Assembly: GCF_000427095.1 (NCBI RefSeq)
Contig: NC_021487.1
Span: 682,001-746,000 of the forward strand
Direction: 5' to 3'
Length of the DNA stretch: 64,000 bases
Origin: Chthonomonas calidirosea T49
GTDB lineage: Bacteria > Armatimonadota > Chthonomonadetes > Chthonomonadales > Chthonomonadaceae
Under the pieces are notes generated by a model that saw only the letters and a list, made by a program, of their open reading frames with translations, did not search any database and had not been told where the DNA came from. Each line of letters opens with the position of its first letter. Within the stretch, counting starts at the first letter, position 1. Positions 5,750 to 48,198 of this stretch are shown one piece after another. Position numbers and translations under genes: made by a program.

Positions 5750-5778
5750 ATGGCAAACTGAACTTAAGTAGGATGCTT

Positions 5779-6720
5779 ATGCTCACCGCCCGGAAAGCTC
5801 CGCGCGAGCTTCCTGTCCTTCTCCTGTTACTTATAACCCTGCTGATTATGGGCATTTTTGTGCCCGCTTTTCGCACGGAAAGCAACCTCACCGCCCTCGG
5901 TGAGAGCGCTGCCTACACTGGTATCCTCGCTTGTGGAGAGGCGTTGCCTCTTTTTACCGCAGGGCTTGACATTTCCGTCGGCTCTACGTTAGCTCTGTCT
6001 AGTTGCAGTGCGGCCAGCGTGCTTATGTTGGGCTGGCCCTGGCCAATAGCTGTAGCGATGGGTCTCTTTGCTGGAGCTTGTGCCGGCTGGTTCAACGGCA
6101 TGTTGGTTACTTGGCGGCGTATGCCACCGATTCTCGCCACACTGGCTACATTTCTCATCTTCCGACATGGGGCTGGCATTCTCACTCATGATCACAGTTA
6201 TGGCCCTTTTCCCCATGCCTTCAACCGCATTGGCTCTGGTTGGGTTCCCGTCCTCCTTCTTATAGCCGTTACGCTTCTCTTCACGGTTCTCGTCCAACGT
6301 GCCACCTTTGGGCGCTGGCTTCTTTCCATTGGTGGCAATGAGATGGCGGCTAGACTCTCCGCTGTGCCTATCGAGAAGATAAAACGACGCGCCTATCTAT
6401 TATGCGGCCTCTGTGCCGGTCTCGCCGGCCTCATCGTTATGGCCTTCAACAACGCCACCCAAGCCAGTGTTGGGCAAGGCACCGAACTCGACGCCATCGC
6501 GGCTTGTGTCGTTGGGGGAACCCGTATTACAGGCGGTGAGGGTTCCGTCATCGGGGCTGCTCTAGGGGCAGTGCTGCTTGCCTTGCTACGCGATGCCTTC
6601 GTGCTTACCGGGCGCCCGGTCAGCGAGTACGGAGTCATCACCGGCGGTGTCATTCTATTGACGGCCATTCTGGAGCGCCTCCGTAGGGCAAACACCAACC
6701 TGCAGGAGGAGACGGTTTAA
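5779..6720 (+). CDS. Ribose-type ABC sugar permease (RbsC family), first copy
   Basis: Inner-membrane permease of a CUT2-type sugar ABC importer (BPD_transp_2 family), about 313 residues with 8-10 hydrophobic segments. Family signatures are GLDISVGSTLALSS near residue 59 and GGTRITGGEGSVIGAALG near residue 248. The ATG at 5779 is preferred to that at 5773 because AGGA lies five bases before it. Its stop codon overlaps the next start by one base (TAATG), so the two permeases are translationally coupled and probably form a heterodimer. No ATPase or binding protein is encoded beside it. Substrate cannot be deduced, but coupling to a xylanase gene suggests xylan-derived or another plant sugar. 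Confidence 0.92.
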   Translation: MLTARKAPRELPVLLLLLITLLIMGIFVPAFRTESNLTALGESAAYTGILACGEALPLFTAGLDISVGSTLALSSCSAASVLMLGWPWPIAVAMGLFAGACAGWFNGMLVTWRRMPPILATLATFLIFRHGAGILTHDHSYGPFPHAFNRIGSGWVPVLLLIAVTLLFTVLVQRATFGRWLLSIGGNEMAARLSAVPIEKIKRRAYLLCGLCAGLAGLIVMAFNNATQASVGQGTELDAIAACVVGGTRITGGEGSVIGAALGAVLLALLRDAFVLTGRPVSEYGVITGGVILLTAILERLRRANTNLQEETV

Positions 6721-7670
6721 TGGGCAAGCTGCGCTCTCTTCCAGCAGAAACCGGTGTTGCCTTTGTCTTCATCTTTATTGTAGGCTTTTTGAGTTGGAGG
6801 GCACCTGACTTCGCAACGTGGGCTAATATCCGCCTCCTTACCAAACAGGCCGCCGAGCTGATGTTGGTCTCTCTAGGGATGACTTTTGTCATCGCTACCG
6901 GCGGAATTGACCTGTCTGTAGGCTCCTTACTTGGCCTCAGTGGGATGGTGCTGGGCCTCGTGCTGCTTCATGGCGGCACAATGATTACTGCGTGCCTTGC
7001 CGCGTTGGGTGTAGGCCTGCTCGTTGGAGCCTTGCACGGCGTGCTTATTGGGCGAGCCCGCATGCCAGCGATTCTTATCACTTTGGCAAGCTACGCCGCC
7101 GCACGTGCGGGAGCTACCATGATCTACAATGGTGGAAGCATTTCAGCGATTCCGCTCTCCATGAACGAACTTTTCGATAACACGCTCTTTGCCGGTTTGC
7201 CAGTTCTTTTGTGGGTCAGCCTTATCGCCATCGTTTTCAGTTGGGTTCTTCTACGACACACCTCTTTTGGCCGCAGTCTCCTTGCTCTCGGTGGCAACCG
7301 TCGAGCTACCTATCTCACCGGAGTCCCTACAGCGCGCATCGAGCTTTTGGTCTATATGCTTAGCGGCCTATGCGTTGGTTTGGCCGCCATCATTGATGTG
7401 GCATTAAAAGCCACAGCCACCCCTGATGCCGGCCAATATCTAGAACTACAGGCCATCACGGCCGTGGTCCTTGGGGGCACCTCGATCACTGGTGGCCAAG
7501 CCACCATACTTGGGACAGCGCTTGGTGTTGCGGTCATCACCGTACTGCTCAGCGGCGTGCGCCTGATGGGCATGGAAGATCGGGTGGGTTGGTTTTTTGT
7601 CGGCGTCGCGCTGCTGTTGGCCGTTGAGGCCCAAAGAGGATGGAGAAAGAAAGGAGATATCTCATCATGA
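6720..7670 (+). CDS. Ribose-type ABC sugar permease (RbsC family), second copy
   Basis: Second CUT2-type permease, 316 residues, with the paired family motifs GGIDLSVGSLLGLSG (near residue 60) and GGTSITGGQATILGTALG (near residue 251). It is a divergent relative, not a recent duplicate, of the preceding gene. It starts within the stop codon of the first permease and its own TGA overlaps the ATG of the xylanase gene (ATGA at 7667-7670), so three products are likely made from one message. As in its partner, only the membrane-spanning component is present; an ATPase and a binding protein must come from elsewhere. Confidence 0.92.
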   Translation: MGKLRSLPAETGVAFVFIFIVGFLSWRAPDFATWANIRLLTKQAAELMLVSLGMTFVIATGGIDLSVGSLLGLSGMVLGLVLLHGGTMITACLAALGVGLLVGALHGVLIGRARMPAILITLASYAAARAGATMIYNGGSISAIPLSMNELFDNTLFAGLPVLLWVSLIAIVFSWVLLRHTSFGRSLLALGGNRRATYLTGVPTARIELLVYMLSGLCVGLAAIIDVALKATATPDAGQYLELQAITAVVLGGTSITGGQATILGTALGVAVITVLLSGVRLMGMEDRVGWFFVGVALLLAVEAQRGWRKKGDISS

Positions 7671-19429: not shown

Positions 19430-20482
19430 CTACTTTAGAAACTGAGCCACATTGGCCTTCGTCACGATAACACATGGAGTCTTTACCACTGGCGGGACCT
19501 TTTTGCCGCTGAGATAGTCGTTAATTGTGTCAATAACGGCCTTTCCTATCAGGTCAGGCTGGGTCGCCAAACAGGCCGTATACTTTCCATCGCGGATCGC
19601 CTCCAGTGAGGGTCTATTACCATCAATGCCGATGGTCAAAAGTTGCCTTCCGGCATCTCTCGCCGCCTTGGCCGCTCCAAGTGCCATCTCATCACTACAT
19701 CCAAAAACAAGGTCGAGATTTGGGAAACGCTGAAGCCAATCTCGTGTAATCGCCGTGCCATCGGCTCGAAGCCAATGACCGTTCTGCTCGGCGACGATGT
19801 GGATATCCGGGTACTTCTTAAGCGCGTCCTTAAATCCTCCCGCACGAAGGTTTGTGTGGTCTCCCGGCTCTCCATCGAGTATCGCCACGTTGCCCCGATA
19901 GGCTCCATACTTTTGCTTTAGTAGCTCTGCAGCCTCCTCGCCGCACTTGCGCCCACCCTCGTACTCGTCATAACCAATGTACGACACCACCTGCCCCCCG
20001 CCTTCAACTGGGGATATCTGATTGTGCACAAAAATGGGGATATGAGCCCGATTGCAGTTCTTAATAATATTGACCAGCGCCTGCGGATTGATCCCACATA
20101 CGCTGATCGCCGCCGGATGGCGCTGAATGATGTCTTGCACCAACGCCACCTGCCCCGTGTAGTCGCTTTCACTGGAAGGAGCCTGATCGATAATGGGAGG
20201 AAGCCCAAGACGTTTGGCCTCTTCAGCTGCAGCCGCCGCCAGGGTAACATGAAATGGACTTGTCTTTGCCGGTGAAACCACCGCAATGACGCGTTGGCTC
20301 AGAGCGCCGTTCCCTCCCTGTCTAGAGGAGGTCGCTCCCCCCGAGCCAGAAGGGTTACTGCTGCAGCCCGCTAGCGCAAAGAAGAGCAGGCCTATCATCA
20401 GACCTCTTTGGAAGGCAGTCCGCCTAGCAATAACGTCCCTCTCAACACGCAGCAGCTTTCCCTCAGCAAATGAACGGTTCAT
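19430..20482 (-). CDS. Sugar-binding lipoprotein of a ribose-type ABC importer
   Basis: Periplasmic or membrane-tethered solute-binding protein of the Peripla_BP_4 (RbsB-like) family, 350 residues. The lipobox LAGC places the lipidated Cys at residue 40, followed by a Ser/Gly linker; the two-lobed binding domain (about 65-350) has VIAVVSPAKTSPFHVTLAAA at its start, ISVCGINPQALVNI, and LDLVFGCSDEMALGAAKAA. Its ATG overlaps the TGA of the permease gene (ATGA), so it is translationally coupled. The n-region before the hydrophobic stretch is long, so an internal start cannot be excluded. Ligand is likely a sugar released by the upstream GH172 enzyme, but binding residues were not mapped. Confidence 0.92.
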   Translation of the reverse strand: MNRSFAEGKLLRVERDVIARRTAFQRGLMIGLLFFALAGCSSNPSGSGGATSSRQGGNGALSQRVIAVVSPAKTSPFHVTLAAAAAEEAKRLGLPPIIDQAPSSESDYTGQVALVQDIIQRHPAAISVCGINPQALVNIIKNCNRAHIPIFVHNQISPVEGGGQVVSYIGYDEYEGGRKCGEEAAELLKQKYGAYRGNVAILDGEPGDHTNLRAGGFKDALKKYPDIHIVAEQNGHWLRADGTAITRDWLQRFPNLDLVFGCSDEMALGAAKAARDAGRQLLTIGIDGNRPSLEAIRDGKYTACLATQPDLIGKAVIDTINDYLSGKKVPPVVKTPCVIVTKANVAQFLK

Positions 20483-21429
20483 AGTCGTGCACCTCTTCTC
20501 TTTTGGATTTCGTCGAACGCCACAGCCCCCATTATAATCGCCCCGATGGCCACTTTTTGCCAGTTCGAGTCGATGCCCGCAAGATCAAGCCCGTTGCGAA
20601 TGAGCCGCATGAGGAGAGCGCCCGCCAACGTGCCCACAAGGTTCCCGCGACCACCGCTCAGACTTGTTCCCCCGATAACGACCGCGGCTATGGAGTTCAA
20701 CTCAAGGTCAATACCGGCATCTGGTACGGAAGCACCCACCATCGCCGTTTCGGCCAAGCCAGCAAGCGCTGCCAAAATGCCACACAGAATATAGACACCG
20801 AGTTTGATCCGGTTCACCTTCAGGCCGGATAGATGCGCAGCTGTCTCATTGCCGCCAATGGCATAGATGGCCCGACCAGTGGCGGAACGCGATAACCAAA
20901 GGTGGCTAATCCCGTATAACACGAACATCAGCACCACTCCCACCGTTACCTGACCGGGGAGCGTGTGACCTAAAAAGGTGTAGCCATGTGGCAGATCAGT
21001 GATACCAGTTCCATGGGAAACAATGTAGGCTAGGCCGCGTACAATGGACATGGTGCCTAACGTGGCGATGAAGGGAGGCAAATAAGCCTGTGTGATCGCG
21101 AGCCCATTGATGAGACCAACAGCCCCACCCACAGCTAAGCAGCACAGCACGCCAATAACGGCGGAGTGCCAAAGGCCACCGGTATGCTGCGTAATCAACC
21201 AAGCCCCTAGAAACGGCGCCAAAGCAGCCAAACTTCCTACGGAAAGATCGATCCCCTCGGTGAGAATCACCATCGTCATCCCAACCGAGACGATCGCTAT
21301 CTCCACCGACTGATCGAGAACATTTAGCAGATTTGAAGGCTGCCGAAACTGCGGTAGCCAGATGGCAAAGAAAAATGCCACCACGATAACGGCAACGTAA
21401 ACGCCAGCATTACGAACGATCTCTCGCAT
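20479..21429 (-). CDS. Ribose-type ABC sugar permease (RbsC family), third copy
   Basis: CUT2-type permease of 316 residues with the signatures EGIDLSVGSLAALAP (near residue 61) and GGTSLSGGRGNLVGTLAG (near residue 250) and a C-terminus ending EIQKRRGARL. The start at 21429 (MREIVRN) is chosen because AGGAGG lies just upstream and it falls 20 bases after the GH172 stop codon; the longer frame would run back into that gene. It is flanked by the GH172 gene and a binding protein, but again without an ATPase, so the importer must borrow a nucleotide-binding subunit or use one encoded elsewhere. Confidence 0.92.
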   Translation of the reverse strand: MREIVRNAGVYVAVIVVAFFFAIWLPQFRQPSNLLNVLDQSVEIAIVSVGMTMVILTEGIDLSVGSLAALAPFLGAWLITQHTGGLWHSAVIGVLCCLAVGGAVGLINGLAITQAYLPPFIATLGTMSIVRGLAYIVSHGTGITDLPHGYTFLGHTLPGQVTVGVVLMFVLYGISHLWLSRSATGRAIYAIGGNETAAHLSGLKVNRIKLGVYILCGILAALAGLAETAMVGASVPDAGIDLELNSIAAVVIGGTSLSGGRGNLVGTLAGALLMRLIRNGLDLAGIDSNWQKVAIGAIIMGAVAFDEIQKRRGARL

Positions 21430-21449
21430 ATGCCTCCTAGAAATACGGG

Positions 21450-23855
21450 TTAGGGCAAAGGCTTTAGCCCTATCGCATCTACTCCAATAAGGTAGTTGGT
21501 GGAAGCCGGGTTCTTGCCTACCGCTCGAAACGTAAGCCGATGCACGCCCGCCGTTAGCATCACGTTCCCCAAAATGGTCTGGTCTTTGGCCTGAACATTG
21601 GGAGTGTAACAATCGGTTGGCTGCCCTATCGGGTTGCCATCAAGCAACACCTGCACAATGGCATAATCTCTCGCCGTCGTGTAGTAGACCGACAGCTCAT
21701 AGCTACCCGTTTTTTCCACAGGGAGCTCCACGGTCATCTGGGCACCCTGCCGATGGCCGGTAAACCAGAGCTGCTGGTTGTTATCCCAGTAGGGGCCAAA
21801 CCCGGTCATGTCTTGAATCTGGGCTTCGCCATCGGTTGCCTCCACGACTTTTAGGTCGGTTGCCGGAATGCTATTTGGATGCAGTAGGCGTCGTAACGTA
21901 AGATAGTCTAGATACAGCGTCTGCCCTGTGGGTATCTGAAAGAACAGGGTGTGATCGCCAGCTGTTAGATGAAGCGTTTGGTGCACACTATTTGTTTCAT
22001 CGGCCCGAATCGCTTCCGTTGGTGCAGGGCCGACCTGCTTAGGATCATCTACCGCCCAGTTCTGACCTAGTCGCGCTGTGCCCGCCAACGGTGGCTGCAC
22101 CAACGAGAGTATGTAGTCCCCCTCCTTGGCGACGGGCAGCACACAAGCGGCCGTTCCACCATGCAGCTCCACAACAGCACCACCGCTGGCTAGGACGGGC
22201 AGGTTCATGTCGTCTATTACCTGCGGGTCTCCGGAAGTCCACCGCAAGCTCTCCGCTTCTATAGCATCCTGAGCGTGCCAATGCGTCGGTGTCAGTTGTG
22301 TCGGATCCAGAGGCGACCAGTTGTCGTCAGGTGCTGTTTGGTACCAATAGGCCACACAGGCGTAGTCCGACCCAGGATAGTTGTCAATAGGGCCATGCTG
22401 AATATCCACACGAATAGATTTTTGGAAAGGAACGCAATCCGTGATCTGGTACCGGTAGGCATCCACCCTCGAGTGCGCCTCATCTTTGAGGATACAGCCA
22501 TGGAAGGCCTCGTTAAAGGGGCCTTCATCGAAATACCAGCCGGCGGTGTAGAAGTCCTCTGTCCCTGTTCCTATAATGGAGGGAAACGATTCTCCATCCA
22601 CCCAAATCTCTTCATTTCCTTCCAGAAACCAAATCCCCCTGTCGCCCTGCATGGCCGTGTGTTCACCCACATACAGGCCACGTCCCTGTACCTCGAGAAT
22701 ATGAAAGTTCTCCCCCTCTTTGTTGATCTGGCGGTGCCAGCGCGCGTGAAAATACCCTGCGTCTTTCAACGGCTGTCCCAAACGGTGATAACGCATCTGA
22801 AACAGTACGTTCACCGACCTCTGCCCATAGTTTATCAGCTCAATCCGTGCGCTCTTGGTAAAAGGCATCGGCCAGTAGCAAAAGCCACCTTGGTCGTTCA
22901 TAGCGTCCGGCAGTGCAGCAAACGTCTCCTTTCCGAAACCGGCGCCAAAGAAATCGCCTACAGGCGCCTCTACAGCCGGACGGGTGGCACCGTCCCAGTA
23001 GATACGTAGAACCGTTTGGCGAAGGGTGTATCTGTTCGCTGGATCAAGACGGATATGCAGAGCATCTATCTCTCCAGCTCCAGAAAGGTTCGCCAATGTC
23101 AATGGCTGTCCGGGCACACATTCCGTTTGAACATCTTGGGCCTGCTCTTCCACCACAGAGGGCTTTGGGTCTAGCCCGAGATGCCCCCACTGCTCTAAGA
23201 CCTCCCCAAGAGCAGCCAACTCTTTCTGATGAAGCTGCGGTGAAAAGGTGGCGATCCGTGTACTATCCGGATAGAGTTGGTACTCTACATGATAGTACAT
23301 CGGCCCCGGATCGGTCACCGTAATGAGGCAGTGCTTCTGGAAAGGCATCGGAAAGTAGCAGTACCATCCACCGCTTTTGTGTCCTACTAACGGCTGCAGA
23401 AAGGGGGGTACCTTGCCAAGAAAGAAGTCCTGCATGGCGCAATCTATGGTGGGCGTGGCTGCTCCATCAAAATAGATGCGCAGGTGCCCCGCTGCATTAG
23501 CCGACCAGAACCGATAGATGCACCCCGGCCCGCGAATATCGGCGAGCACCGCCGTATGTCCCTCAACCCTCAGAAAATGCCCAAAATCGGCGTTGTAAAA
23601 GTTCCGGTCATAGCTCGAATCCTGCACGCACCGACTATCGCGCAAATAGGGCAGTAGATCGAAACGCGAAAGCAGCTCCAAGCCGTAGGGCAATGGTGGC
23701 GAGTGGGGAAGTGCTGCCCGTGGCGCTAACGATAAGGTCGAGCCAGGCCCGTTAATAGGGTTTGGTAACGCGACGGGTGACTGTTGAGCATACAAAAATT
23801 CCGCGCCTAAGGCGAGTATTACCGCTATAAGCGCCTGACATAACGTTTGGTACAT
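21450..23855 (-). CDS. Secreted GH172 (DUF2961) enzyme with C-terminal sandwich domains
   Basis: An 801-residue exported protein (signal peptide about 1-23). The body carries DUF2961, now glycoside hydrolase family 172, whose characterised members act on alpha-D-fructofuranose or D-arabinofuranose linkages. Two jelly-roll halves are seen: the first with CIYRFWSANAAGHLRIYFDG (about 107-126), the second with the hallmark IIGTGTEDFYTAGWYF near residue 430. After about residue 560 come two carbohydrate-binding-like sandwiches, each with a LTAG(D/V)H(T/R)L-type strand. Coupling to a sugar permease and binding protein makes a uptake-linked exo- or transglycosidase likely. The exact substrate and catalytic Glu pair were not assigned. 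Confidence 0.9.
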   Translation of the reverse strand: MYQTLCQALIAVILALGAEFLYAQQSPVALPNPINGPGSTLSLAPRAALPHSPPLPYGLELLSRFDLLPYLRDSRCVQDSSYDRNFYNADFGHFLRVEGHTAVLADIRGPGCIYRFWSANAAGHLRIYFDGAATPTIDCAMQDFFLGKVPPFLQPLVGHKSGGWYCYFPMPFQKHCLITVTDPGPMYYHVEYQLYPDSTRIATFSPQLHQKELAALGEVLEQWGHLGLDPKPSVVEEQAQDVQTECVPGQPLTLANLSGAGEIDALHIRLDPANRYTLRQTVLRIYWDGATRPAVEAPVGDFFGAGFGKETFAALPDAMNDQGGFCYWPMPFTKSARIELINYGQRSVNVLFQMRYHRLGQPLKDAGYFHARWHRQINKEGENFHILEVQGRGLYVGEHTAMQGDRGIWFLEGNEEIWVDGESFPSIIGTGTEDFYTAGWYFDEGPFNEAFHGCILKDEAHSRVDAYRYQITDCVPFQKSIRVDIQHGPIDNYPGSDYACVAYWYQTAPDDNWSPLDPTQLTPTHWHAQDAIEAESLRWTSGDPQVIDDMNLPVLASGGAVVELHGGTAACVLPVAKEGDYILSLVQPPLAGTARLGQNWAVDDPKQVGPAPTEAIRADETNSVHQTLHLTAGDHTLFFQIPTGQTLYLDYLTLRRLLHPNSIPATDLKVVEATDGEAQIQDMTGFGPYWDNNQQLWFTGHRQGAQMTVELPVEKTGSYELSVYYTTARDYAIVQVLLDGNPIGQPTDCYTPNVQAKDQTILGNVMLTAGVHRLTFRAVGKNPASTNYLIGVDAIGLKPLP

Positions 23856-37795: not shown

Positions 37796-37836
37796 ATGCA
37801 GAGCCTCATGCGCCCCCTCTGAAGGAGAGTGTGAGC

Positions 37837-39048
37837 ATGACCGGCGCCGCCGCAGATACAACCTATCCGTCGGACGATACGACAAAAACACGAAAACAAC
37901 GCCGTCGTTCGCTTTCCCTAAACGGCCAGCAAGTCTGCCTGGCCTCCGAGAGAAAGGTTAAGCCCACCAACACAGAAGCCGAAATGGTTCCTCTACCCCT
38001 TCAAGAGGATATCCAAACCCTTCCTTGTCTCCAACCCGGAGACCTACTGCCCGGTGTCGAAAATGCCAAGCCTTGGCCCGATCCCGATGACGGCGATGAG
38101 GGGCTTTTTGCTTGCGATGAAGAGATAGCTTCTCTGCCTTACCCCGACACACAACTCTCCGACGATGTTGAAACCTTTACTCCCGACGACTCGGTGCACG
38201 CCTGGTTACGTGAAATAGGAAAATTTCCTCTTCTCACGGTGGAAGAAGAGATACGTCTCGCTCAATGCATTCTGCGTGCTCGCGAAAACAAGGACGACCC
38301 GGAACTGAAACGAGCCGCCCAACAGGCTCGCGATGCCCTCACTCGTGCGAACTTGCGCCTCGTGGTCTCTATTGCCAAACGCTACCATGGACGGGGCATG
38401 GCCCTCTCTGATCTGATCCAAGAGGGCAACATCGGCCTGCTTCGTGCCATCGAAAAGTTCGACTATCGTCGTGGGTATAAGTTCAGCACCTATGCTACAT
38501 GGTGGATCCGGCAAGCTATCACCCGTGCCATCGCCGATAAAGGCCGTACGATCCGTATCCCTGTTCATATGGTAGAAACGATCAACAAACTCGTTCGCGT
38601 CTCGTCTCAACTTCTGCAAGAGAATGGCCGTGAGCCAACCGTTGAGGAAATCGCCCGCGCGATGAACCTGTCGCCGGAAAAGGTGGCCGAAATTATTCGT
38701 ATCGCCCCTGAACCGCTCTCGCTCGAAACGCCTATTGGTGAAGGAGAAGAGAGCTGCTTGGCCGACTTCGTGGAGGATAAAGAGCATAGCTCCTTGCCCG
38801 AAATCGCCTCTCAAAACATTCTTCGTGAGAAACTAGCCGATGCCCTCAATATGCTCGAAGAGCGCGAACGTGAGGTGCTCATTATGCGCTACGGCCTCGA
38901 AGATGGCGACCCCAAAACCCTCGAAGAAGTAGGCCGACACTTCTGCCTAACGCGAGAACGCATCCGACAGATCGAGCTAAAAGCCCTCCAGAAGCTACGT
39001 AGCCCCCGCTATAGCCGCCATATTAGAACCTATCTTGAATGGCAATAG
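37837..39048 (+). CDS. rpoD: Primary RNA polymerase sigma factor (RpoD/SigA)
   Basis: Housekeeping sigma-70 family factor, 403 residues. After an unconserved acidic N-terminal part (to about 120) come region 1.2 ([19 protein letters not shown]), region 2 ([40 protein letters not shown], then [16 protein letters not shown]), region 3 ([20 protein letters not shown]) and region 4 with [20 protein letters not shown] and [21 protein letters not shown] lies nine bases before the ATG at 37837, which makes it preferable to the GTG at 37831. It lacks the large insert of proteobacterial RpoD. Promoters in this window with TTGACA/TATAAT-like boxes agree with such a factor. Confidence 0.97.
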
Positions 39049-39075: not shown

Positions 39076-39519
39076 ATGGAAAACCCTATGTCGGAAGAAG
39101 ACGAAGTACAAGTTAGCTACTTTGTTATCTGCGATCTCGTCATCACAGAAGAACATACGCGCAAACAATCTCTTATTGGCATCTACTCCGCGCTTACGAC
39201 GTCTCAGTTGCCACTCCATGCCAACATGGCCGTGGCCTTTAGCCTTCGCCTGCAATCGGCTACGCCACGCCGTCTACGAGTGCGGCTGCTCGACCCAGAC
39301 GGCGGCACCGTGCTAGAAACCCCAGATCTCCCCTTCGAATGGCAAACCGTGCTACATAGCCTCGAACGCTCGGCATTTGCAACTATTCAAATTGGGCTCA
39401 ATCTGCGCATGGTGCCCATTACCAAGGCGGGGGTCCACGTGGCAGGTCTTCTCTGCGATGATCGCCTCATCGCCTCCTATCCCCTCCAAGTTTTTTTGCA
39501 ACAACCTATCGGTGGCTAA
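39076..39519 (+). CDS. DUF6941-like protein, unknown function
   Basis: A 147-residue cytoplasmic protein. SYFVICDLVITEEHTRKQS followed by LIGIYSALTTSQLP matches the start of the DUF6941 pattern, which runs through a short beta-sandwich; VAFSLRLQSATPRRLRVRLL and LPFEWQTVLHS are typical later strands. No function is established for the family. The gene follows the sigma factor by 27 bases. Either the ATG at 39076 or that at 39088 may be used; neither has an unambiguous ribosome site. Confidence 0.65.
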   Translation: MENPMSEEDEVQVSYFVICDLVITEEHTRKQSLIGIYSALTTSQLPLHANMAVAFSLRLQSATPRRLRVRLLDPDGGTVLETPDLPFEWQTVLHSLERSAFATIQIGLNLRMVPITKAGVHVAGLLCDDRLIASYPLQVFLQQPIGG

Positions 39520-39595: not shown

Positions 39596-42500
39596 ATGGA
39601 AACACCAAATAACCTATTGCAGGCCAAACTTCAGGCTGCGCGCACACGTCATCGTCTGCTCACCGGCCTAGCTGGCCTTTTTTGGACGTTGAGCCTATCT
39701 ATCCTCTTTGTGCTCATAGGGTTCTATGTTGACCGCGCCATCACCCTCTCCTACATCGGGCGTGTCGTTTGGCACGATCTTCTTATTGCGCTTGCTCTAC
39801 TTTCTCTTGCCATAACGCTTGTCGCTGCCTTGCTTCGCAAACTGCCCGACACCCAATTGGCCGTTCGAGTGGAACGTCGCTTTCCTGTATTTGCAGAGCG
39901 GCTTCTTACCAGCCTTAGTCTTATGCCCGCTCTGGCATCCGACGCCGCCGGTTTTTCACCTACCCTAGCTCAATCTCTTCTTCACGAAACCCACCAGATC
40001 GCAGCAGACCTCGATTTTCGGAAAGCCATTAATACCGCTCCATTACAACGGGCTGCTCTGGTAGCTTTTGCATGCCTCCTTCTTCTGTTGCTGCATATCC
40101 TGCTCGCCGGTCAAGCCTTTGGTGTTTGGATACTACGCCTTTCCTATCCAAAACAAGATATCGCTCCCTTCGCCGCAACTCGTCTGCAGGTGCTTCCCGA
40201 AAAAACCCTCCTGCCTGAAGGGGCTTCCACATGGATTACCGTTAAAACCTGGGGCAAACCGGCCACCCAATGCACGCTTCGCATCCATCGGCAAACCGAC
40301 CCGCCCGACGTTTGGCAAACGATAGCGCTCGACAAGCCTGCTAGCATACAAACTGCTGGTTCTCTAAAAAGTTCCCTTTTTCGTTATCGTCTTGCACATC
40401 TCACACAAAGTGTGTCTCTCATGGCCCTCGCCAACGATGGACGTTCAAATACGCGTGATATTACGGTTGTGCCGCTTCCTACCGTTGTGAACGTCCGCCT
40501 GCGCATTCAGTTTCCGGCCTACACCCATCGTCCAACGCAGATCATCAGTGCGCCAACAGGTAGTTTCACCGCTCTCAAAGGCTCACATATTCAAGTGAGC
40601 GCTACTACGAATACTCCGTTACGCTCAGCCCTCTGTTACTTCAACGGGGTGCCATCGCTTTGGCACATTAATGGAAAAACTCTTTCCGGCGCTTTCAACG
40701 TTATGCAAAACAGCACCTATCGCTTTATTCTGACCGATCAGCATGGATTTACTAACCCCAATAGTCCCCTCTATACCATTCGAGTGGAACGCGATCAGCC
40801 TCCATCCGTCCAGATACTGCGACCGGCCACCGACCTTGAACTCGTGCCCAACGGCTCGCTGCCGTTGGTAGCTCACGCCTCCGATGACTTCGGTATTGAC
40901 CACATGGATCTGAACTATCAAAAAGCACATCAAGATCCTACGCAACTCTCAACGGCGGTGCCAAAGGGACTACCTTTCCATCAGCTTCGCCTGCCAGGTC
41001 CTACAGGCACTCCCTCGGCCGATATTCGCCTGCGCTGGCATTTGGAAAGCATTCGGCCTCAGGTGGGCGACGTCATCACCTACAACGTAAGCGCCACAGA
41101 TAACGATGCCGTGGATGGTCCCCACACAGCCTATTCGCTCTCCTATCATATCCACATCGTTAGCCTGCCGGAAATGCAGCAGAGGCTGAAAGAAGCGCTA
41201 GATGAAGAGCAGCACGCGCTGGAGGAGTTACGACGCACACAAAACGAGGCGCAACAACAGACCCAGCAAGCCCGCCTTCGTCCCGACGCCGATCGCATTG
41301 CACGCGCTTCTCAAACACAGATGGCAGCCGCCGAACAGGCTCGGTCTTTAGCTCAAGAGGTCCAAAACCTTACCCAACAGCTCCAAAATAACGAAATGGC
41401 CACGCCCTCTGAGCTGAACCGACGCCAACAGGCGGTAGATGCCCTCCAAGCCCAAGCCAACCAGAAAATGCCCTCCACAGCGCAAACACTCCAGCAAGCG
41501 GAATCGGCAAAATCCCCGCAGCGTCTCAATGACCTCAACCAGGCCGGTCAGCAACAAAACAGCATCCAAAAAGATCTCGATCGCATACAGCAACTTCTAT
41601 CCCGTACCCCCTCAGCCGATCAGTTAGCGCAAAAGGCTGCCTCTCTTGCCCAACAGCAACAACAGCTTGCCGATAGCTCCCGAGCCATCGCCGAAGATCT
41701 CCGTTCGAGCAACAAGACGATGGCACCTGAGGATAAGATGGGCCTGCAGGTAGAGCGTCAACAGCAAGCCCAGGTCAACAAAGCGACACAACAACTCGAG
41801 CAGCAACTGCAGCGCGCAGCGCAATCTGCCCAAGAACGCGGCGATCAACAGACCGCCCAAGCGCTTAAACAAGCGGAAGAAGCTCTTAAACAGGGCCAGG
41901 TGCAATCTAACCAACAACAGGCTCAGCAAAATCTACAACGAAACAACCCACAAAATGCGGCTCCGCACCAGGATCGGGCAGCTCAAGCGCTCCAAAAGGC
42001 TGCCGAGGAGGCACAACAGGCTGCGGGTCAGCAAAACCAGATGACCTCCGCCGAGCAACTCGAGCAAGAGGCTCAGCGCCTCCAAGAGCTAGCCCAACAG
42101 CAACAGCATGTAGCTAACCAGATTCAGCAGCACCCTAATTCCTCTCAAAGCCATGCCCTGAGCCGTCAAGAGCAGCAGATACAACGTCAAGCACAGCAAG
42201 CACAAAACTCCCTACAAGGCGTGCCCCAAGCCCAACAAAACCTACAAAACGCCCAACAGAACCTTCAGCAATCGGGTCAACAGCTGCAACAGAACCGTCC
42301 GCAGCAAGCCCAGTCTCCCGCTAACCAGGCGGCACAAGACCTTCAAAAAGCAGCCCAGAACGCCAAGAGAGCAGCCCAACAGCTTCGTCAAATTCAAGCC
42401 GCCCAACAACTTGCCGAAAAGGTGCAGGAGCTTGCTCAACTGCAACACGGCCTGCTCGATACGACACGCCGACTCGATAAGACGGCTCAACAAGGCAACC

Positions 42501-43477
42501 TCGACAGCAACGACATGCGGGAGCGAAGGCAGGTGGGCGCTCGTCAAGAGGAAGCCGAAAACCAAGCCAACGAACTGGCAGGAAAATTCCCGTCGCCCGC
42601 CTTTCAACGTGCTATGCGCATGGCGGCAGGCCAAATGGATAAAGCAAGTAAAAACCTCAATCAGGACGAGCCAAACACTGGTGCCTCAACCCAACAAGCC
42701 CAAGAAAATGCCGCTCGCACCCTCGATGCCATTGCGAAAGCTCTGCAAATGCAGGCCCAAAACAGTAGCGGGCAGCAGCAGGCCGATCAACAAAACAGCC
42801 AAGAGGCCGCAAACGCCGCCCAACAAGATGAGATGGCGGAAACCCTTGGTGAACTGATGCTGGGGCGCTCCCTCCAGAATCAACTTCGCCAAGAAACCGG
42901 GCAACTAGACAGAGAGCGCGACCAACGGCCCGATCGCTCTCTAACCCCTCAACAACAGCAACAAGCAGAGCATCTCGATCGAGGCCAGCAGATGACTCAA
43001 GAGATCACCAACGAGGCCGCTCAGCACCTCCAGCAGATGCCCGATGCCCAAAGAGCTGCACAACAAGCAGGCCAACATATGCAACGTGCAGAACAACAGT
43101 TGAGCCAAAAACAGACAGGCCGTCCTACTCAGCAACAGCAAGATCTAGCCCTACATAGCCTTGACCAGGCTATACAACAGGTGCAGCAGGCCTTGCAACA
43201 ACAGCAGCAACAGCAACAGGCTATGCAGCAAGCTATGCAAGGCGCTCCACGCCCTATGCAACGTCCGGGTAGCCAACCACAAATACAGCCCTTTACTCGC
43301 CTCGAAGGTGTTCAGCGTGGAGCCCTCCTTAGCCCGAATATGCTGGCCAGCAAGCCCTCTCTTGATCCGCGCGCCCAACGCGCCCTCCAACAGGGTCGGC
43401 GCGAGAAAATCCCACCCGAGTTCCAAGATTTCGTCTACCGATACTACGAGAGTCTTGCGGAGAAAAAAGGAAAATGA
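39596..43477 (+). CDS. DUF4175-like membrane protein with giant Gln-rich coiled region
   Basis: A 1293-residue envelope protein. Two membrane helices are seen in the first 80 residues (about 22-45 and 55-80) and a third at about 155-185; these and the following Ig-like sandwiches (about 195-520, including VRLRIQFPAYTHRPTQIIS and PPSVQILRPATDLELVPNG) match DUF4175-type proteins of planctomycetes and relatives. From about residue 524 to 1230 it is a Gln/Ala-rich coiled coil, including eight Gln in a row near residue 1210. The C-terminus (IPPEFQDFVYRYYESLAEKKGK) matches the conserved tail of these proteins. Its stop overlaps the next start. GAGG lies 9 bases before the ATG. Function unknown. Confidence 0.85.
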   Translation: METPNNLLQAKLQAARTRHRLLTGLAGLFWTLSLSILFVLIGFYVDRAITLSYIGRVVWHDLLIALALLSLAITLVAALLRKLPDTQLAVRVERRFPVFAERLLTSLSLMPALASDAAGFSPTLAQSLLHETHQIAADLDFRKAINTAPLQRAALVAFACLLLLLLHILLAGQAFGVWILRLSYPKQDIAPFAATRLQVLPEKTLLPEGASTWITVKTWGKPATQCTLRIHRQTDPPDVWQTIALDKPASIQTAGSLKSSLFRYRLAHLTQSVSLMALANDGRSNTRDITVVPLPTVVNVRLRIQFPAYTHRPTQIISAPTGSFTALKGSHIQVSATTNTPLRSALCYFNGVPSLWHINGKTLSGAFNVMQNSTYRFILTDQHGFTNPNSPLYTIRVERDQPPSVQILRPATDLELVPNGSLPLVAHASDDFGIDHMDLNYQKAHQDPTQLSTAVPKGLPFHQLRLPGPTGTPSADIRLRWHLESIRPQVGDVITYNVSATDNDAVDGPHTAYSLSYHIHIVSLPEMQQRLKEALDEEQHALEELRRTQNEAQQQTQQARLRPDADRIARASQTQMAAAEQARSLAQEVQNLTQQLQNNEMATPSELNRRQQAVDALQAQANQKMPSTAQTLQQAESAKSPQRLNDLNQAGQQQNSIQKDLDRIQQLLSRTPSADQLAQKAASLAQQQQQLADSSRAIAEDLRSSNKTMAPEDKMGLQVERQQQAQVNKATQQLEQQLQRAAQSAQERGDQQTAQALKQAEEALKQGQVQSNQQQAQQNLQRNNPQNAAPHQDRAAQALQKAAEEAQQAAGQQNQMTSAEQLEQEAQRLQELAQQQQHVANQIQQHPNSSQSHALSRQEQQIQRQAQQAQNSLQGVPQAQQNLQNAQQNLQQSGQQLQQNRPQQAQSPANQAAQDLQKAAQNAKRAAQQLRQIQAAQQLAEKVQELAQLQHGLLDTTRRLDKTAQQGNLDSNDMRERRQVGARQEEAENQANELAGKFPSPAFQRAMRMAAGQMDKASKNLNQDEPNTGASTQQAQENAARTLDAIAKALQMQAQNSSGQQQADQQNSQEAANAAQQDEMAETLGELMLGRSLQNQLRQETGQLDRERDQRPDRSLTPQQQQQAEHLDRGQQMTQEITNEAAQHLQQMPDAQRAAQQAGQHMQRAEQQLSQKQTGRPTQQQQDLALHSLDQAIQQVQQALQQQQQQQQAMQQAMQGAPRPMQRPGSQPQIQPFTRLEGVQRGALLSPNMLASKPSLDPRAQRALQQGRREKIPPEFQDFVYRYYESLAEKKGK
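41166..43280 (+). repeat. Gln/Ala-rich low-complexity coding region
   Basis: Within the DUF4175-like gene, about 705 codons are dominated by CAA/CAG and GCN with heptad-like hydrophobic positions. Longest pure run is eight Gln codons, mixed CAA and CAG, at about 43195-43218. The synonymous mixing argues against recent triplet slippage and for selected composition. Confidence 0.8.
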
Positions 43478-44583
43478 AGCGCTCTTTCTGGAGTGCGCTC
43501 TTAATTGCTGTTTCTCTCTCTTTAACAACAATAACGGCTTTTGCCGGCCAACAACGAACAAAACGACCGGTATCGCCCTGGGATGTCGAGGCGCGCCTCT
43601 ACCTTGGCACGCCACAATCGGAACGCGCTGTAGAACGCGGCCTTAAATACCTGGCCGCTCAGCAAATGCCCGACGGCCATTGGGCGAGTGGAGGCTACCC
43701 TGAAGATGTGGCCATTAACGGTCTTTGCCTCCTCGCTTTTCTCTCCGCAGGTTACCAACCCGGCCGCGGTCCCTACGGCACCAACCTCGATCTGGCCGTG
43801 GACTGGCTCGCCAAACAGATACAGATGAGCGGCCAATTCGCCCCACCAGGCCTCATTCGCAGCGCCAGTGGAGGCCCTCCCATGTACGGTCAGGGCTTTG
43901 CCCTGCTCGCTCTCGCGGAAGTTTACGGAATGACGCGCCTACGCGGGCTCAAACCGAAATTGGAAGCGGCTATCCGCCTATTGGAAGATACGCAAAACCA
44001 AAACGGCCAACCCTGGTTGGATGGAGGCTGGCGCTATATGCCTCGTCCAGGCGATGCCGACCTCTCTGTAACAATTGTAGAGTTTATGGCTCTTAAGGCC
44101 TGCCAAAACGCAGGACTGGCCGTTTCTAAAGAGACCCTCGATCGCGCTATCGGCTATATCCGCCGTGCTGCCAACCCCGACGGCGGTTTCAGCTACCAGA
44201 TCGGCCAAAATCAATCAAATGTGGCTCGAACCGGCGCCGGTGTGCTTGCCCTTTATCTCTCCCATCTCAGCAACACTCCAGAATGTCAGAACGGCCTTCG
44301 TTATCTTGCCGAACATCCTCTCGATGCGCGTAACTTCTGGCTCTATCGGGAACATTTCCACTATGCGATCTACTACATAACCCAGGCGGCCTACCAGGAA
44401 GGCGGCACGTTCTGGCGCACTTGGTACCCCGCCATCCGCGATGAACTCGTTCGCACCCAGAATGCAAACGGCAGCTGGGAAGATACCCCGTTCGGCTCGG
44501 ATGCTGGAGGCGTCTATGCCACTGCGATGTCTATTCTCGTGCTTCAAGTTCCTGCCGGTTTACTGCCGATCTACCAAAAGTAG
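43474..44583 (+). CDS. Secreted alpha/alpha-toroid (prenyltransferase/squalene oxidase repeat) protein
   Basis: A 369-residue protein with a signal peptide (about 1-25, ending AFAGQQ) and repeated terpenoid-cyclase/prenyltransferase-like helical hairpins: RGLKYLAAQQMPDGHWASGG, ALAEVYGMTRLRG, DTQNQNGQPWLDGGWRY, IGYIRRAANPDGGFSYQIG and RTQNANGSWEDTPFGSDAGG. The QW-like G-x-W and G-G-F/W elements are retained but the cyclase DxDD motif is not seen, so it is unlikely to be a hopene synthase; in planctomycetes and relatives such secreted toroids accompany DUF4175-type proteins. Its start overlaps the previous gene's stop by four bases. Confidence 0.85.
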   Translation: MKRSFWSALLIAVSLSLTTITAFAGQQRTKRPVSPWDVEARLYLGTPQSERAVERGLKYLAAQQMPDGHWASGGYPEDVAINGLCLLAFLSAGYQPGRGPYGTNLDLAVDWLAKQIQMSGQFAPPGLIRSASGGPPMYGQGFALLALAEVYGMTRLRGLKPKLEAAIRLLEDTQNQNGQPWLDGGWRYMPRPGDADLSVTIVEFMALKACQNAGLAVSKETLDRAIGYIRRAANPDGGFSYQIGQNQSNVARTGAGVLALYLSHLSNTPECQNGLRYLAEHPLDARNFWLYREHFHYAIYYITQAAYQEGGTFWRTWYPAIRDELVRTQNANGSWEDTPFGSDAGGVYATAMSILVLQVPAGLLPIYQK

Positions 44584-44593
44584 GCCTGCCACG

Positions 44594-45361
44594 ATGAGGT
44601 TTTTCAAGCTATCCTGCTTTGGTCTGAGCGGTGTCATTCTCTGTACTGTATCCTATCTGAGAGCCATACAGGCCTCCCCCCCACCAGCAAACCCACCGAC
44701 GCCGAAGGCCTCTGCGGCTAAAGCGGCTCCTATTGAGAAAATCACGGATAACCTCTATCGGCTCGGCACCTTGCTCATTGACATGAAGGCCCATACCCTA
44801 ACGTGTCCCGGCGAGATCAACATGGATTCAGGCGATGTAGAATATCTCGCCGTTACCCCCATGGGCAAGACTTACGAAAGCTTGCTTCGCCTCAACGTCA
44901 GGCCGCTTTACCTTCAAGTGGGCCTCCTGCTGCTAGGCCTCGAACCGAAAAATGTGCTGCGATATCAAGGCGACCCTACGTCGCCTCAAGGCGATCCGGT
45001 GGACATCCTAGTGCGTTGGGAAGACCGCAATGGCATCGAACATCAAGTCCGTGCGGAAGATCTCCTTATGGAAGGTTCCAAAGGAAGCCCAATGCCCCAC
45101 CATCCTTGGGTCTTTACAGGCTCTCGTATTTTGCCGGAAGGTTTCGAGGCCGATCTCTGTGGCTCGCTTGTAGCTGTCTGGCATGACCCTGCCGCCATCC
45201 TAGATAATCCTATGCAGGAAATACAAAACGACTGGATGGTCAATCCTGCTAAAACCCCACGTAGAGGCACTTCCATACGAGTTATCTTCAAGGCGATCCA
45301 TGTCCCCAAGCAGACTTCCCCATCTTTGCCACAGCACACTGATCCGGATGCGAAGCGTTAG
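44594..45361 (+). CDS. YdjY-like exported protein
   Basis: A 255-residue protein with a signal peptide (about 1-27), a Pro/Ala-rich linker and a domain matching YdjY: IDMKAHTLTCPGEINMDSGD, VEYLAVTPMGKTYESLLRLN, VRPLYLQVGLLLLGLEPKN and PVDILVRWEDRNG. The family's function is unknown but it is found with secreted toroid and DUF4175 proteins. The start at 44594 lies ten bases after the preceding stop; the longer frame overlaps that gene without a signal. Its last 14 bases overlap the next gene. Confidence 0.85.
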   Translation: MRFFKLSCFGLSGVILCTVSYLRAIQASPPPANPPTPKASAAKAAPIEKITDNLYRLGTLLIDMKAHTLTCPGEINMDSGDVEYLAVTPMGKTYESLLRLNVRPLYLQVGLLLLGLEPKNVLRYQGDPTSPQGDPVDILVRWEDRNGIEHQVRAEDLLMEGSKGSPMPHHPWVFTGSRILPEGFEADLCGSLVAVWHDPAAILDNPMQEIQNDWMVNPAKTPRRGTSIRVIFKAIHVPKQTSPSLPQHTDPDAKR

Positions 45362-46235
45362 ACCTCCACGGCCCCAGGCCCTCATCGCTGTCGTAAAACG
45401 CCAGTGGCGTGGAAAGGCCTGGTGGCAGGAAGCAGGCACGGCAGCACTGCTCTTCGGCCTGTTGCTTCTCATTGCATTAGGGCTCCAGAAACTATGGTTA
45501 GAAACGCCGTGGCAACATACAAGTAGTGTGGGAGATCGTTGGAGTGGCTGGCTACAACAGTGGGCGTCCGCTGCCTTTGTCGCCATCGCTTTGCTTCTCC
45601 CCTTATCCGGCGTCACGCTAGGCGCTTATGCCCAACCCGCGGCTGTCGAGACCGTTGATTTTAAAGCCTCCTTGCTAACAGGCCTTACGCCTTTTGAACT
45701 TCTTCTGGGGCGTCTTTTCGCCCAGCTACGGCTCCCTCTCCTCTGTTGGCTTTGCAGCCTTCTGTTCTGGAGCTATTTGCAAAGAGCCTTTCATCCACTA
45801 CCGGATGTTCACATGCTCGCTATCCTCAAAGCTCACGTGGCTCTCCTCTCCACACTCTTTCTATTTGCCTCCATCGGCTGTCTTGCCGCGGGGAAAGCGT
45901 CACCCGGACGCTCTATCACCCGTAGCCTCATCGTGGGCTATCTGCTCTTTTTCCTTCTCATCACCGATCTCTTCGTGTTCAACCCCGTTTTAAATACCTT
46001 GCAAAATCCTACAGATTTCTTTGTCGCTTTGCTCTTTATGAACCCTGTTGTCGCCGTCACAACCCCCATCAAATTCGACCTCTTGCGTACCCAATGGGTC
46101 TACGATCACACGAGCGCTCCAGACTATCCCTTCCAATATCCATCATGGCTCCATCAAGGGCTAGTTTTCTTTGGAATAACTCTCCTCCTGCTGCTCATCG
46201 CCCAAAAACGTTGTGCCAAAGCCTACTTTTCTTAA
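45348..46235 (+). CDS. Multipass membrane protein, ABC-2-permease-like
   Basis: A 295-residue protein with six or so hydrophobic segments: AALLFGLLLLIALGLQKLW (about 32-50), AAFVAIALLLPLSGVTLGAY, LRLPLLCWLCSLLFWSY, LLSTLFLFASIGCLAAGK, SLIVGYLLFFLLITDLF and GLVFFGITLLLLLIA. The stretch ETVDFKASLLTGLTPFELLLGRL resembles the coupling part of ABC-2 type permeases, but no ATPase is adjacent. The ATG at 45348 lies inside the YdjY-like gene, an overlap of 14 bases, which suggests translational coupling. It is the last gene of the envelope block and converges with the kinase gene. Confidence 0.7.
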   Translation: MRSVRPPRPQALIAVVKRQWRGKAWWQEAGTAALLFGLLLLIALGLQKLWLETPWQHTSSVGDRWSGWLQQWASAAFVAIALLLPLSGVTLGAYAQPAAVETVDFKASLLTGLTPFELLLGRLFAQLRLPLLCWLCSLLFWSYLQRAFHPLPDVHMLAILKAHVALLSTLFLFASIGCLAAGKASPGRSITRSLIVGYLLFFLLITDLFVFNPVLNTLQNPTDFFVALLFMNPVVAVTTPIKFDLLRTQWVYDHTSAPDYPFQYPSWLHQGLVFFGITLLLLLIAQKRCAKAYFS

Positions 46236-46290: not shown

Positions 46291-48198
46291 CTACGACCTT
46301 TTTAACCACCACATCACGCGCCGACCTTGGCGCTCTCTCTCCCATCCCTGCATCGTCTTGCTTGAGGCGTCAATATACCCCTTGAACTGACGTATACGCC
46401 CCCTACCAGCACGCGGAACGATCTTGAGAACCACCGAATTGCCATTTAACCTCCCCTCCACCCGCGCCGTAACATGTCCAGGAAGTCCCTCCATCTTTCC
46501 CATAAAACGATTCGAACCCAACGCCTCGAGGATCACCCGCACACGTTGCCCTTCAAGCACTCCCTGCCAACGGCCCGCCAATGTTACCGGTGATCTCGAG
46601 CCCTCCGTCGTCCAAACCCACCGTTGTACAAAGGTTGGGTTGGAAAAAACTGTTTTCTGAGCGATTAATGCTACTAATGCGATCAAAGCTAAAATACTCG
46701 CCGTTCCAATACGCCACCAACGCCGCAGTTCTTCCACCTCGGGCAAAGCACCTTTGCGAAAACCACCCACAACGGCACCTCCAATCACCCCTAGTGCCCC
46801 CCACGCTAATGCGGGCACGGTGATGCCAAGAAAGCAAAAGGCGCTCGCCAACGAGTCGCCAAGCGATACAAAAAGGAGCCCAGAGAGCGCCGCTCCAAAG
46901 GCTAGATAGCGTAAGCCTAAGAGGGTTGCCTGCTGCACCAATACAATCCACCCTAACGAATCATGTGCGGTCACCAGTGGCACATGAAAGAGAAAGCTTA
47001 ATCCCCCAATACATAACAAAATGCAGACCAAGGAGATCAACAGAGAGATAGGAAAGAGCAACCACTGGGTTTTTCCAAACGTCCCCAAAACTCGGTAGAG
47101 TATCCAAAGAACAGCTACCTCCAAAACAGCTCCAAAGGCCATGTAGGGTGCCACGAGCGCATAGAAGTAGGAGGGCGACCAACTGCGTATTACCGGATCA
47201 TACCAGAGTGAGCTTCGCTCCGGAAAGAGAAATAACGGATTCCATCGGCTACCGCCAGGCAACCAAAAAGAGAGAAGGCCCCTCAACACTAAAAGGCTCC
47301 CACCCCCGAAGGCAGCTGCTTTTACCAGCGAGCGCCAAGATATCTCCGTTTGAGGAGGTTTTGGCGGCGCATCCAGTAATGCTAATACGCCTCGAGGAGT
47401 TAAACGATCCCGCGGGTTCTTCTCTAAACACCCCTCTGCAATCGTCCGAAAGGGCTCCGGCAACCGATGAAGATGGGAGGGTGGTAAGTGCAAAACCGCA
47501 TGAATCTTCTCCTCAATGCTCTGCCCTTCAAAAGGCAAATGCCCCGTGAGCGCCTCGACCAACACCACGCCTAACGACCAAATATCCCAGGCCGGAGTCA
47601 CATAGTTGCGGAACGCTTCTGGCGGCGCATAGGCCGGGGTACCCATTACGGTAGTCGCTGTGGTCATATCCCCCCGCGGCCCCAGCTCGCGCATCAAACC
47701 TAAATCGGCTAGCTTCCACCTTCCCTCACTCCATAAGATATTGGCTGGCTTCACATCCCGATGCACCCAGTGTTCCGGACGTTCGTGAAGATAGAGCAGA
47801 ACATCGCACATCTGCCGTAACAGCGTTTCCGCTTCCTCAGGTGTCAGTAAACCCCGCTTCAGCCGTTGCTCTAAGCTCTCATCTGCACGCTCCATCACCA
47901 AATAGAGCATGGGAATCGCCTTATTTTGAAAAGAGTAAGTGAACTGACCAGGAGCAAAATATCGAATGAGGTTGGGATGATGAAGCGTGGTTGAGGTCTG
48001 CAACTCGCGCAGCTGCTGCTCTCTGTGCTCCTCCGCCACACGAAAGAGCTTCACCACAACCTCGCGCAGAACACGCCCAGCAACAACCTCATCTGCCAAG
48101 AAAACGGCTCCATATCCCCCAACTCCTATCCGTTGGCGAAGATGGTACTTTCCGTCTAAAACTTGCCCTTCAAATAAGTCCCCAAAAAGATCGCTCAT
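46291..48198 (-). CDS. Membrane serine/threonine protein kinase
   Basis: A 635-residue Hanks-type kinase. The N-terminal kinase domain (about 15-275) has the Gly loop GVGGYGAVF, Lys50 in VVVKLF, HRDVKPANILW with Asp148, DLG (165-167, in place of DFG), the activation segment TTATTVMGTPAYAPPEAF, and DIWSLGVVLVEALTG. Six membrane helices follow between about 290 and 535, then a C-terminal 95-residue domain rich in beta strands (VTLAGRWQGVLEGQRVRVI). Most bacterial kinases have one helix; six is unusual. With an even number, the C-terminal domain would lie on the same side as the kinase if the topology is correct. It ends a long minus-strand gene run. Confidence 0.93.
   Translation of the reverse strand: MSDLFGDLFEGQVLDGKYHLRQRIGVGGYGAVFLADEVVAGRVLREVVVKLFRVAEEHREQQLRELQTSTTLHHPNLIRYFAPGQFTYSFQNKAIPMLYLVMERADESLEQRLKRGLLTPEEAETLLRQMCDVLLYLHERPEHWVHRDVKPANILWSEGRWKLADLGLMRELGPRGDMTTATTVMGTPAYAPPEAFRNYVTPAWDIWSLGVVLVEALTGHLPFEGQSIEEKIHAVLHLPPSHLHRLPEPFRTIAEGCLEKNPRDRLTPRGVLALLDAPPKPPQTEISWRSLVKAAAFGGGSLLVLRGLLSFWLPGGSRWNPLFLFPERSSLWYDPVIRSWSPSYFYALVAPYMAFGAVLEVAVLWILYRVLGTFGKTQWLLFPISLLISLVCILLCIGGLSFLFHVPLVTAHDSLGWIVLVQQATLLGLRYLAFGAALSGLLFVSLGDSLASAFCFLGITVPALAWGALGVIGGAVVGGFRKGALPEVEELRRWWRIGTASILALIALVALIAQKTVFSNPTFVQRWVWTTEGSRSPVTLAGRWQGVLEGQRVRVILEALGSNRFMGKMEGLPGHVTARVEGRLNGNSVVLKIVPRAGRGRIRQFKGYIDASSKTMQGWERERQGRRVMWWLKRS

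What the first reader, a model, noticed from the sequence alone, without database searches (positions are those of the whole stretch)
39596..46235. Candidate undescribed envelope system: Gln-rich DUF4175-like protein, secreted toroid, YdjY-like protein and multipass protein
Four genes are packed with overlaps or a ten-base gap: 1293-residue membrane protein, exported alpha/alpha-toroid, exported YdjY-like protein and an ABC-2-like membrane protein. Three are membrane-bound or exported and two belong to families with no assigned function. Family knowledge: such toroid, YdjY and DUF4175 proteins co-occur in planctomycete-type genomes. Inference: the coiled Gln region spans or scaffolds the envelope and the toroid binds its substrate.
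Basis: partly seen in the sequence, partly recalled or inferred. Interest (0 to 1): 0.62.

Follow-up and report, generated by a model that had tools for sequence, protein, structure and literature searches.

The report
Scattered MoxR-linked cell envelope gene cluster
The four genes are real but are only part of a larger, widely conserved bacterial gene set (a MoxR ATPase, its membrane partners and an exported ring-shaped protein, probably for looking after the cell envelope), which in this genome has been broken into three distant pieces.

Summary
The four genes exist as described: DUF4175 (39596-43477), exported alpha/alpha-toroid (43474-44583), YdjY (44594-45361) and a multipass protein (45348-46235). 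They do not form a self-contained new system. In relatives of the same family they run directly into toroid-2, MoxR (AAA+), DUF58 and BatA/VWA genes. In the sister family and in Planctomycetota the core is MoxR, DUF58, BatA, a second VWA protein, DUF4175 and toroid, without YdjY or the multipass gene. In the window's genome the missing genes are present but scattered: toroid-2, MoxR, DUF58 and BatA near 0.145 Mb, and the second VWA gene at 2.978 Mb. The finding is therefore the extracytoplasmic arm of a Bat/Cmd-type MoxR system. DUF4175-toroid linkage recurs in at least 39 of 118 sampled planctomycete genomes, always on the same strand. A conserved C-terminal tail of the DUF4175 protein is a separate, mostly exported protein in Planctomycetota (profile match 97.9%; shuffled controls at most 1.4%), so tail and toroid probably meet outside the cytoplasm. 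The toroid has the squalene-cyclase fold, but no toroid-1 relative carries the DxDD motif. The proposed work (an ATPase-driven tether-plus-toroid envelope device) is inferred. New variant of a known kind.

The parts
39596..43477 (+). DUF4175-type membrane protein, 1293 aa: 3 TM helices, Ig-like array, Gln/Ala-rich tether, conserved tail
   Evidence: PF13779 40.4 bits over cut-off; AlphaFold2 model of residues 1-540, pLDDT 88; hydropathy
39668..39835 (+). TM helices 1 and 2 (residues 25-43 and 62-80)
   Evidence: hydropathy; long helices 4-49 and 53-80 in the model
39836..40051 (+). Helical segment between TM2 and TM3, predicted cytoplasmic, with conserved ERRxPxLxERLL motif
   Evidence: alignment A6, model; the side of the membrane is inferred from positive charge
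40052..40108 (+). TM helix 3 (residues 153-171)
40172..41158 (+). Array of Ig-like beta domains (residues 193-521), holds the Pfam DUF4175 match
   Evidence: Ig-domain matches up to Z 12; Pfam residues 304-518
41183..43285 (+). Gln/Ala-rich tether (27% Q, 16% A)
   Evidence: similar length (about 620-760 aa) in near relatives although Q content varies from 7 to 28%
43358..43474 (+). Conserved C-terminal tail (VPxEYxxLVxxYYxxLSE type)
   Evidence: homologous to the end of the separate planctomycete protein, hhalign 97.9% against at most 1.4% for 20 shuffles
43474..44583 (+). Exported alpha/alpha-toroid 1 (squalene-cyclase fold, no DxDD), N-terminal signal region
44594..45361 (+). Exported YdjY-domain protein, 255 aa
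   Evidence: NF040466 141.9 bits, cut-off 50; 38-54% identical to relatives, most of them linked to a toroid; export inferred from the N-terminus
45348..46235 (+). Multipass membrane protein, about 7 hydrophobic segments, weakly ABC-2-permease-like
   Evidence: hydropathy; relatives' weak PF12679 hits; conserved NP and D.LR motifs

Best explanation
The four genes are the extracytoplasmic arm of a Bat/Cmd-type MoxR system. SHOWN: the same genes are contiguous with toroid-2, MoxR, DUF58 and BatA in close relatives; the sister family and Planctomycetota keep the core MoxR, DUF58, BatA, VWA, DUF4175 and toroid; the window's genome holds all of these parts at three distant sites. SHOWN: the DUF4175 protein is predicted to have three TM helices, Ig-like domains, a long low-complexity tether and a conserved tail, and that tail is a separate gene product, usually with a signal-like N-terminus, in Planctomycetota. 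INFERRED: the cytosolic MoxR ring, helped by DUF58 and the membrane VWA proteins, acts through the membrane on the DUF4175 anchor. The tether's tail docks the exported toroid (or another exported partner). The toroid holds an envelope polymer or protein, and ATP-driven cycles assemble or release that complex to keep the envelope sound. YdjY and the multipass protein are lineage-specific accessories.
For: Contiguous order in G043, G044, G051 and G053. Sister family order DUF4175, toroid, MoxR, DUF58, BatA, VWA. Own-genome partners: MoxR, DUF58, BatA and toroid-2 at C1:142.9-148.1 kb and VWA at 2.978 Mb, 887 bits. Toroid-1, toroid-2 and YdjY occur in the same 15 of 17 family genomes, and the other two lack all five families searched. 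In Planctomycetota, 46 of 112 strong DUF4175 loci in 118 genomes have a same-strand toroid within 10 kb and none on the opposite strand; DUF58, BatA and VWA genes, and MoxR where the locus reaches far enough, precede them. Tail homology and fused form L120. Linked toroids are clustered on the tree, deep branches included. Envelope and morphology defects of mutants in the R. leguminosarum operon are cited in PMC5700661 and PMC3893208.
Against: No interaction, location or phenotype is known for these proteins. Leptospira bat deletion had no growth, morphology or oxidative phenotype (PMC3557215), so 'envelope integrity' may not carry over. Planctomycetota have many toroid paralogues without DUF4175 nearby, so the toroid may serve several systems. 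No NPCBM, YdjY or ABC-2-like partner is universal. The complex of tail and toroid could not be modelled.
Confidence: 0.6

Rival explanations
1. A stand-alone four-gene envelope system, independent of any MoxR module.
For: In this genome and its nearest clade (G045, G047-G050) the four genes stand apart from MoxR.
Against: Contiguity with MoxR genes in other members of the same family and in two other lineages; YdjY and the multipass gene are missing from the sister family while DUF4175 and toroid stay with MoxR. The species is known for dispersed operons (PMC4959169).
Confidence: 0.1
2. A classical MoxR maturation system: MoxR and VWA proteins insert a cofactor into, or activate, an exported enzyme, here the toroid; DUF4175 only holds it at the membrane.
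For: MoxR-family proteins mature enzymes such as CO dehydrogenase and usually occur with VWA proteins (PMC3893208). Several planctomycete toroids carry twin-arginine-like signal regions, hinting at export in folded form.
Against: No invariant Cys or His in toroid 1. No known enzyme motif (DxDD absent).
Confidence: 0.2
3. The toroid is a terpenoid (hopanoid/sterol-like) cyclase and the locus makes or moves envelope lipids.
For: Closest fold is squalene-hopene cyclase, Z 27.6, 287 residues at 2.8 A; profile match E 1.5e-23.
Against: No toroid-1 relative has a DxDD motif; the few in toroid-2 fall in two other sequence contexts. The protein is exported and single-domain, and no isoprenoid genes were recognised in the operon itself.
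Confidence: 0.05
4. An ABC exporter module: the multipass protein is an ABC-2 permease and the others are its periplasmic partners.
For: Weak PF12679 and PF12730 hits in relatives.
Against: No ATPase gene recognised beside it in the inspected loci; the permease-like gene is not found in genus g2 or in the sister family while the rest stays.
Confidence: 0.05

Closest known systems
Bat (Bacteroides aerotolerance) / CmdA-D (R. leguminosarum RL3499-RL3502) MoxR-DUF58-VWA operons
   Same: MoxR AAA_3 ATPase, DUF58 and BatA-type VWA membrane proteins in one operon.
   Different: Here joined to a DUF4175 tether and one or two exported toroids, with YdjY and a multipass protein in Chthonomonadaceae. 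In the window's genome the genes lie in three pieces. BatD/BatE-like parts were not looked for.
DUF4175 family (PF13779), including A. baumannii AdvA
   Same: Significant domain match; AdvA is also a membrane protein with a DUF4175 region and TM helices (PMC7481262).
   Different: The match covers only profile positions 190-389 of 825; the tether and tail are not in the Pfam match. AdvA is described as a division protein; no such operon is mentioned in the passages read.
Squalene-hopene cyclase and class II terpene cyclases
   Same: Alpha/alpha-toroid fold.
   Different: Single exported domain without DxDD.
MoxR-vWA ternary conflict systems (PMC7159879)
   Same: MoxR plus VWA logic; the MoxR here scores against the bpMoxR model.
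   Different: The third component here is a DUF4175-toroid set; DUF58 and BatA are not named in that paper and its one 'toroid' mention concerns STAND ATPases.

Membership tests
Bat/Cmd-type MoxR-DUF58-BatA operon | MoxR-family AAA+ ATPase (AAA_3) | tested here: met
   Own genome C1:146 kb, 208-210 bits, cut-off 27; contiguous in relatives
Bat/Cmd-type MoxR-DUF58-BatA operon | DUF58 protein next to MoxR | tested here: met
   170 bits, cut-off 23.4; adjacent to MoxR
Bat/Cmd-type MoxR-DUF58-BatA operon | BatA N-terminal domain plus VWA membrane protein(s) | tested here: met
   BatA 60 bits, cut-off 25.9, and VWA_2 39 bits; second VWA protein at 2.978 Mb
Bat/Cmd-type MoxR-DUF58-BatA operon | One contiguous operon together with the window's genes | tested here: not met
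   Not in the window's genome, where the set is in three pieces; met in G043, G044 and f2 relatives
Bat/Cmd-type MoxR-DUF58-BatA operon | Envelope or aerotolerance phenotype | not testable with these tools
   Needs mutants
DUF4175 (PF13779) | Score over Pfam gathering cut-off | tested here: met
   40.4 against 27.3 bits, partial profile coverage
YdjY domain (NF040466) | Score over curated cut-off across the domain | tested here: met
   141.9 against 50 bits, profile 1-179/181
Squalene-hopene cyclase | Alpha/alpha-toroid fold | tested here: met
   Z 27.6, 287 residues
Squalene-hopene cyclase | Catalytic DxDD motif | tested here: not met
   None of the toroid-1 proteins has D.DD; 10 toroid-2 proteins have it only in two other contexts
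ABC-2 permease | Significant family match | tested here: inconclusive
   Own protein none; 4 of 13 relatives E 5e-4 or weaker; GldF 13.8 against 288.5 bits
ABC-2 permease | Cognate ABC ATPase gene nearby | tested here: inconclusive
   None recognised in the inspected neighbourhoods, but not every flanking gene was scanned

The most novel reading that the evidence does not exclude
DUF4175, its detachable tail and the toroid form a distinct, so far unnamed periplasmic effector set driven by a MoxR-DUF58-VWA machine: a tether that an ATPase moves or remodels through the inner membrane to load or unload an exported toroid on an envelope polymer.
Probability: 0.25. Interest if true: 0.65.

Novelty: new variant of a known kind. 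Interest (0 to 1): 0.42.

Why it matters
MoxR-DUF58-VWA operons are very widespread, yet what they act on is unclear, and studies of the related Bat/Cmd operons have given conflicting results. A conserved extracytoplasmic partner set, with a short tail that exists both fused and free, gives a concrete and testable candidate for the client. It also shows how a species with a scrambled genome can hide half of a conserved system from neighbourhood-based annotation.

Tried and rejected
A genome-contig scan with the single toroid protein found nothing; the alignment scan then gave hundreds of relatives. A pfam family search for DUF4175 in the own genome missed the protein although hmmscan finds it, so its zero was not used. 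Sequence searches of YdjY against solved structures gave nothing, and those of the multipass protein gave only chance-level hits. Ig-receptor matches for the DUF4175 array (Z up to 12, large rmsd) are taken as a common fold only. LexA, LD-carboxypeptidase, MqnC and HtrA beside the second module are not conserved beside it in relatives and were dropped as partners. The full text of Vanderlinde 2011 is not held.

Full report
OBSERVATION. The DUF4175 gene is 39596-43477, toroid 43474-44583 (4-base overlap), YdjY 44594-45361 (10-base gap) and the multipass gene 45348-46235 (overlap). Domain calls hold for DUF4175, the toroid and YdjY. The fourth protein has no significant family match itself; four of 13 relatives weakly match ABC-2 permease models. 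It has about seven hydrophobic segments.

GENOME. The window is C1:682001-746000 of a single-contig genome of 3,437,861 bases. Size, composition and relatives suggest Chthonomonas calidirosea; the name is my inference, as the tools give none.

CONSERVATION NEARBY. In the same family (17 genomes), toroid-1, YdjY and toroid-2 are found in the same 15 genomes. DUF4175 is found in 13 of these; in the other two the toroid's contig is short and ends nearby. G046 and G054 lack all five families searched. The multipass gene is found in 11. Gene calls on the fetched loci show DUF4175, toroid-1, YdjY, multipass, toroid-2, MoxR, DUF58 and BatA in one run in G043, and much the same in G044, G051 and G053. 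In the sister family f2 the run is DUF4175, toroid-1, MoxR, DUF58, BatA and a second VWA protein, and neither YdjY nor the multipass gene is found. So the window's four genes are one end of a larger locus.

WHERE THE REST IS. In the window's own genome, family searches found MoxR and DUF58 side by side near 146 kb. Reading that stretch gave toroid-2, MoxR, DUF58 and BatA in the order seen in relatives. The second VWA protein is at 2,977,904-2,980,270 (887 bits). The set is complete but in three pieces. G045 and G047-G050, the nearest clade on the toroid tree (G049 is not in that tree), share the split between the window's four genes and the toroid-2/MoxR piece. The published description of C. 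calidirosea as having many normally operonic genes dispersed (PMC4959169) fits.

PLANCTOMYCETOTA. An alignment scan of genome contigs brought 80 loci, nearly all from Armatimonadota and Planctomycetota. Of 56 planctomycete toroid loci, 26 have DUF4175 within three genes upstream, 15 lie near a contig edge and 15 have none. Full loci read MoxR, DUF58, BatA, VWA, DUF4175, a 210-360-aa low-complexity protein, toroid and often an NPCBM-domain protein. In 118 planctomycete genomes, 63 have 112 strong DUF4175 loci. 46 of these, in 39 genomes, have a same-strand toroid within 10 kb, and none has one on the opposite strand. The toroid list was cut by the tool, so the linked counts are lower bounds. 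Two arrangements exist: toroid downstream of a long DUF4175, and toroid just upstream of a usually shorter one. A toroid tree groups linked members and has linked members on its deepest branches, which suggests that linkage is old.

THE TAIL. The DUF4175 proteins of Armatimonadota end in a conserved motif (VPxEYxxLVxxYYxxLSE type). In Planctomycetota the DUF4175 protein usually lacks it, and the small protein encoded between DUF4175 and toroid ends with a related sequence. Profile comparison gives 97.9% probability; 20 column-shuffled controls reach at most 1.4%. In L120 the DUF4175 gene carries the tail itself and no separate gene is present. Most of the separate proteins begin with a signal-like segment. 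A domain that is fused in one lineage and separate in another points to a working connection, and the signal-like segments point to a place outside the cytoplasm.

STRUCTURES. The DUF4175 protein (residues 1-540, pLDDT 88) is predicted as three membrane helices, a short helical segment between helices 2 and 3, and an array of Ig-like domains. The tether follows: 27% Gln in the window, but 7-28% in near relatives at similar length, so length rather than glutamine itself seems kept. The toroid (pLDDT 88) is closest to squalene-hopene cyclase (Z 27.6), but the DxDD motif is absent from all toroid-1 relatives. No cysteine or histidine is invariant among the 15 Armatimonadota sequences. A cyclase role is unlikely; a binding role is more likely.

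MECHANISM. Shown: gene linkage, complete parts list, tail fusion/fission, predicted anatomy. Inferred: MoxR with DUF58 and the VWA membrane proteins acts on the cytoplasmic segment of DUF4175; the tether reaches into the space outside the inner membrane and its tail meets the toroid; the toroid holds an envelope component. Literature on related operons is mixed. MoxR-operon mutants of R. leguminosarum have envelope and shape defects as cited in PMC5700661 and PMC3893208. Deleting bat genes in Leptospira had no such effect (PMC3557215). A DUF4175 protein, AdvA, is a division protein in Acinetobacter (PMC7481262). Only that one paper in the searched library names DUF4175, so I found no description of the DUF4175-toroid pairing.

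VERDICT. It is a Bat/Cmd-type MoxR system extended by a DUF4175 tether and exported toroids, broken up in this genome.

Noticed in passing
39076-39519 (+): A DUF6941 protein (76 bits) sits between a sigma-70-type factor gene (37831-39048) and the DUF4175 gene.
   Followed up: partly
46291-48198 (-): Ser/Thr protein kinase with a multipass C-terminal half, convergent with the operon.
   Followed up: partly
5773-6720, 6720-7670 (+) and 20479-21612 (-): Three paralogous window genes that grouped together in the all-against-all comparison.
   Followed up: no
L043 (own genome C1:775000-794900): A second MoxR and DUF58 pair in the own genome; further MoxR genes at 980 kb and 1758 kb and DUF58 genes at 420 kb and 1728 kb.
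   Followed up: no
Planctomycetota, e.g. G302:C58, G324:C22, G326:C39, G306:C6: A second arrangement: toroid directly upstream of a DUF4175 protein, usually a shorter one of about 700-800 aa.
   Followed up: partly
L106:10934-12139, L028:4018-5208: NPCBM (putative carbohydrate-binding) protein directly after the toroid in Planctomycetota; in one Armatimonadota genome, between toroid and YdjY.
   Followed up: partly
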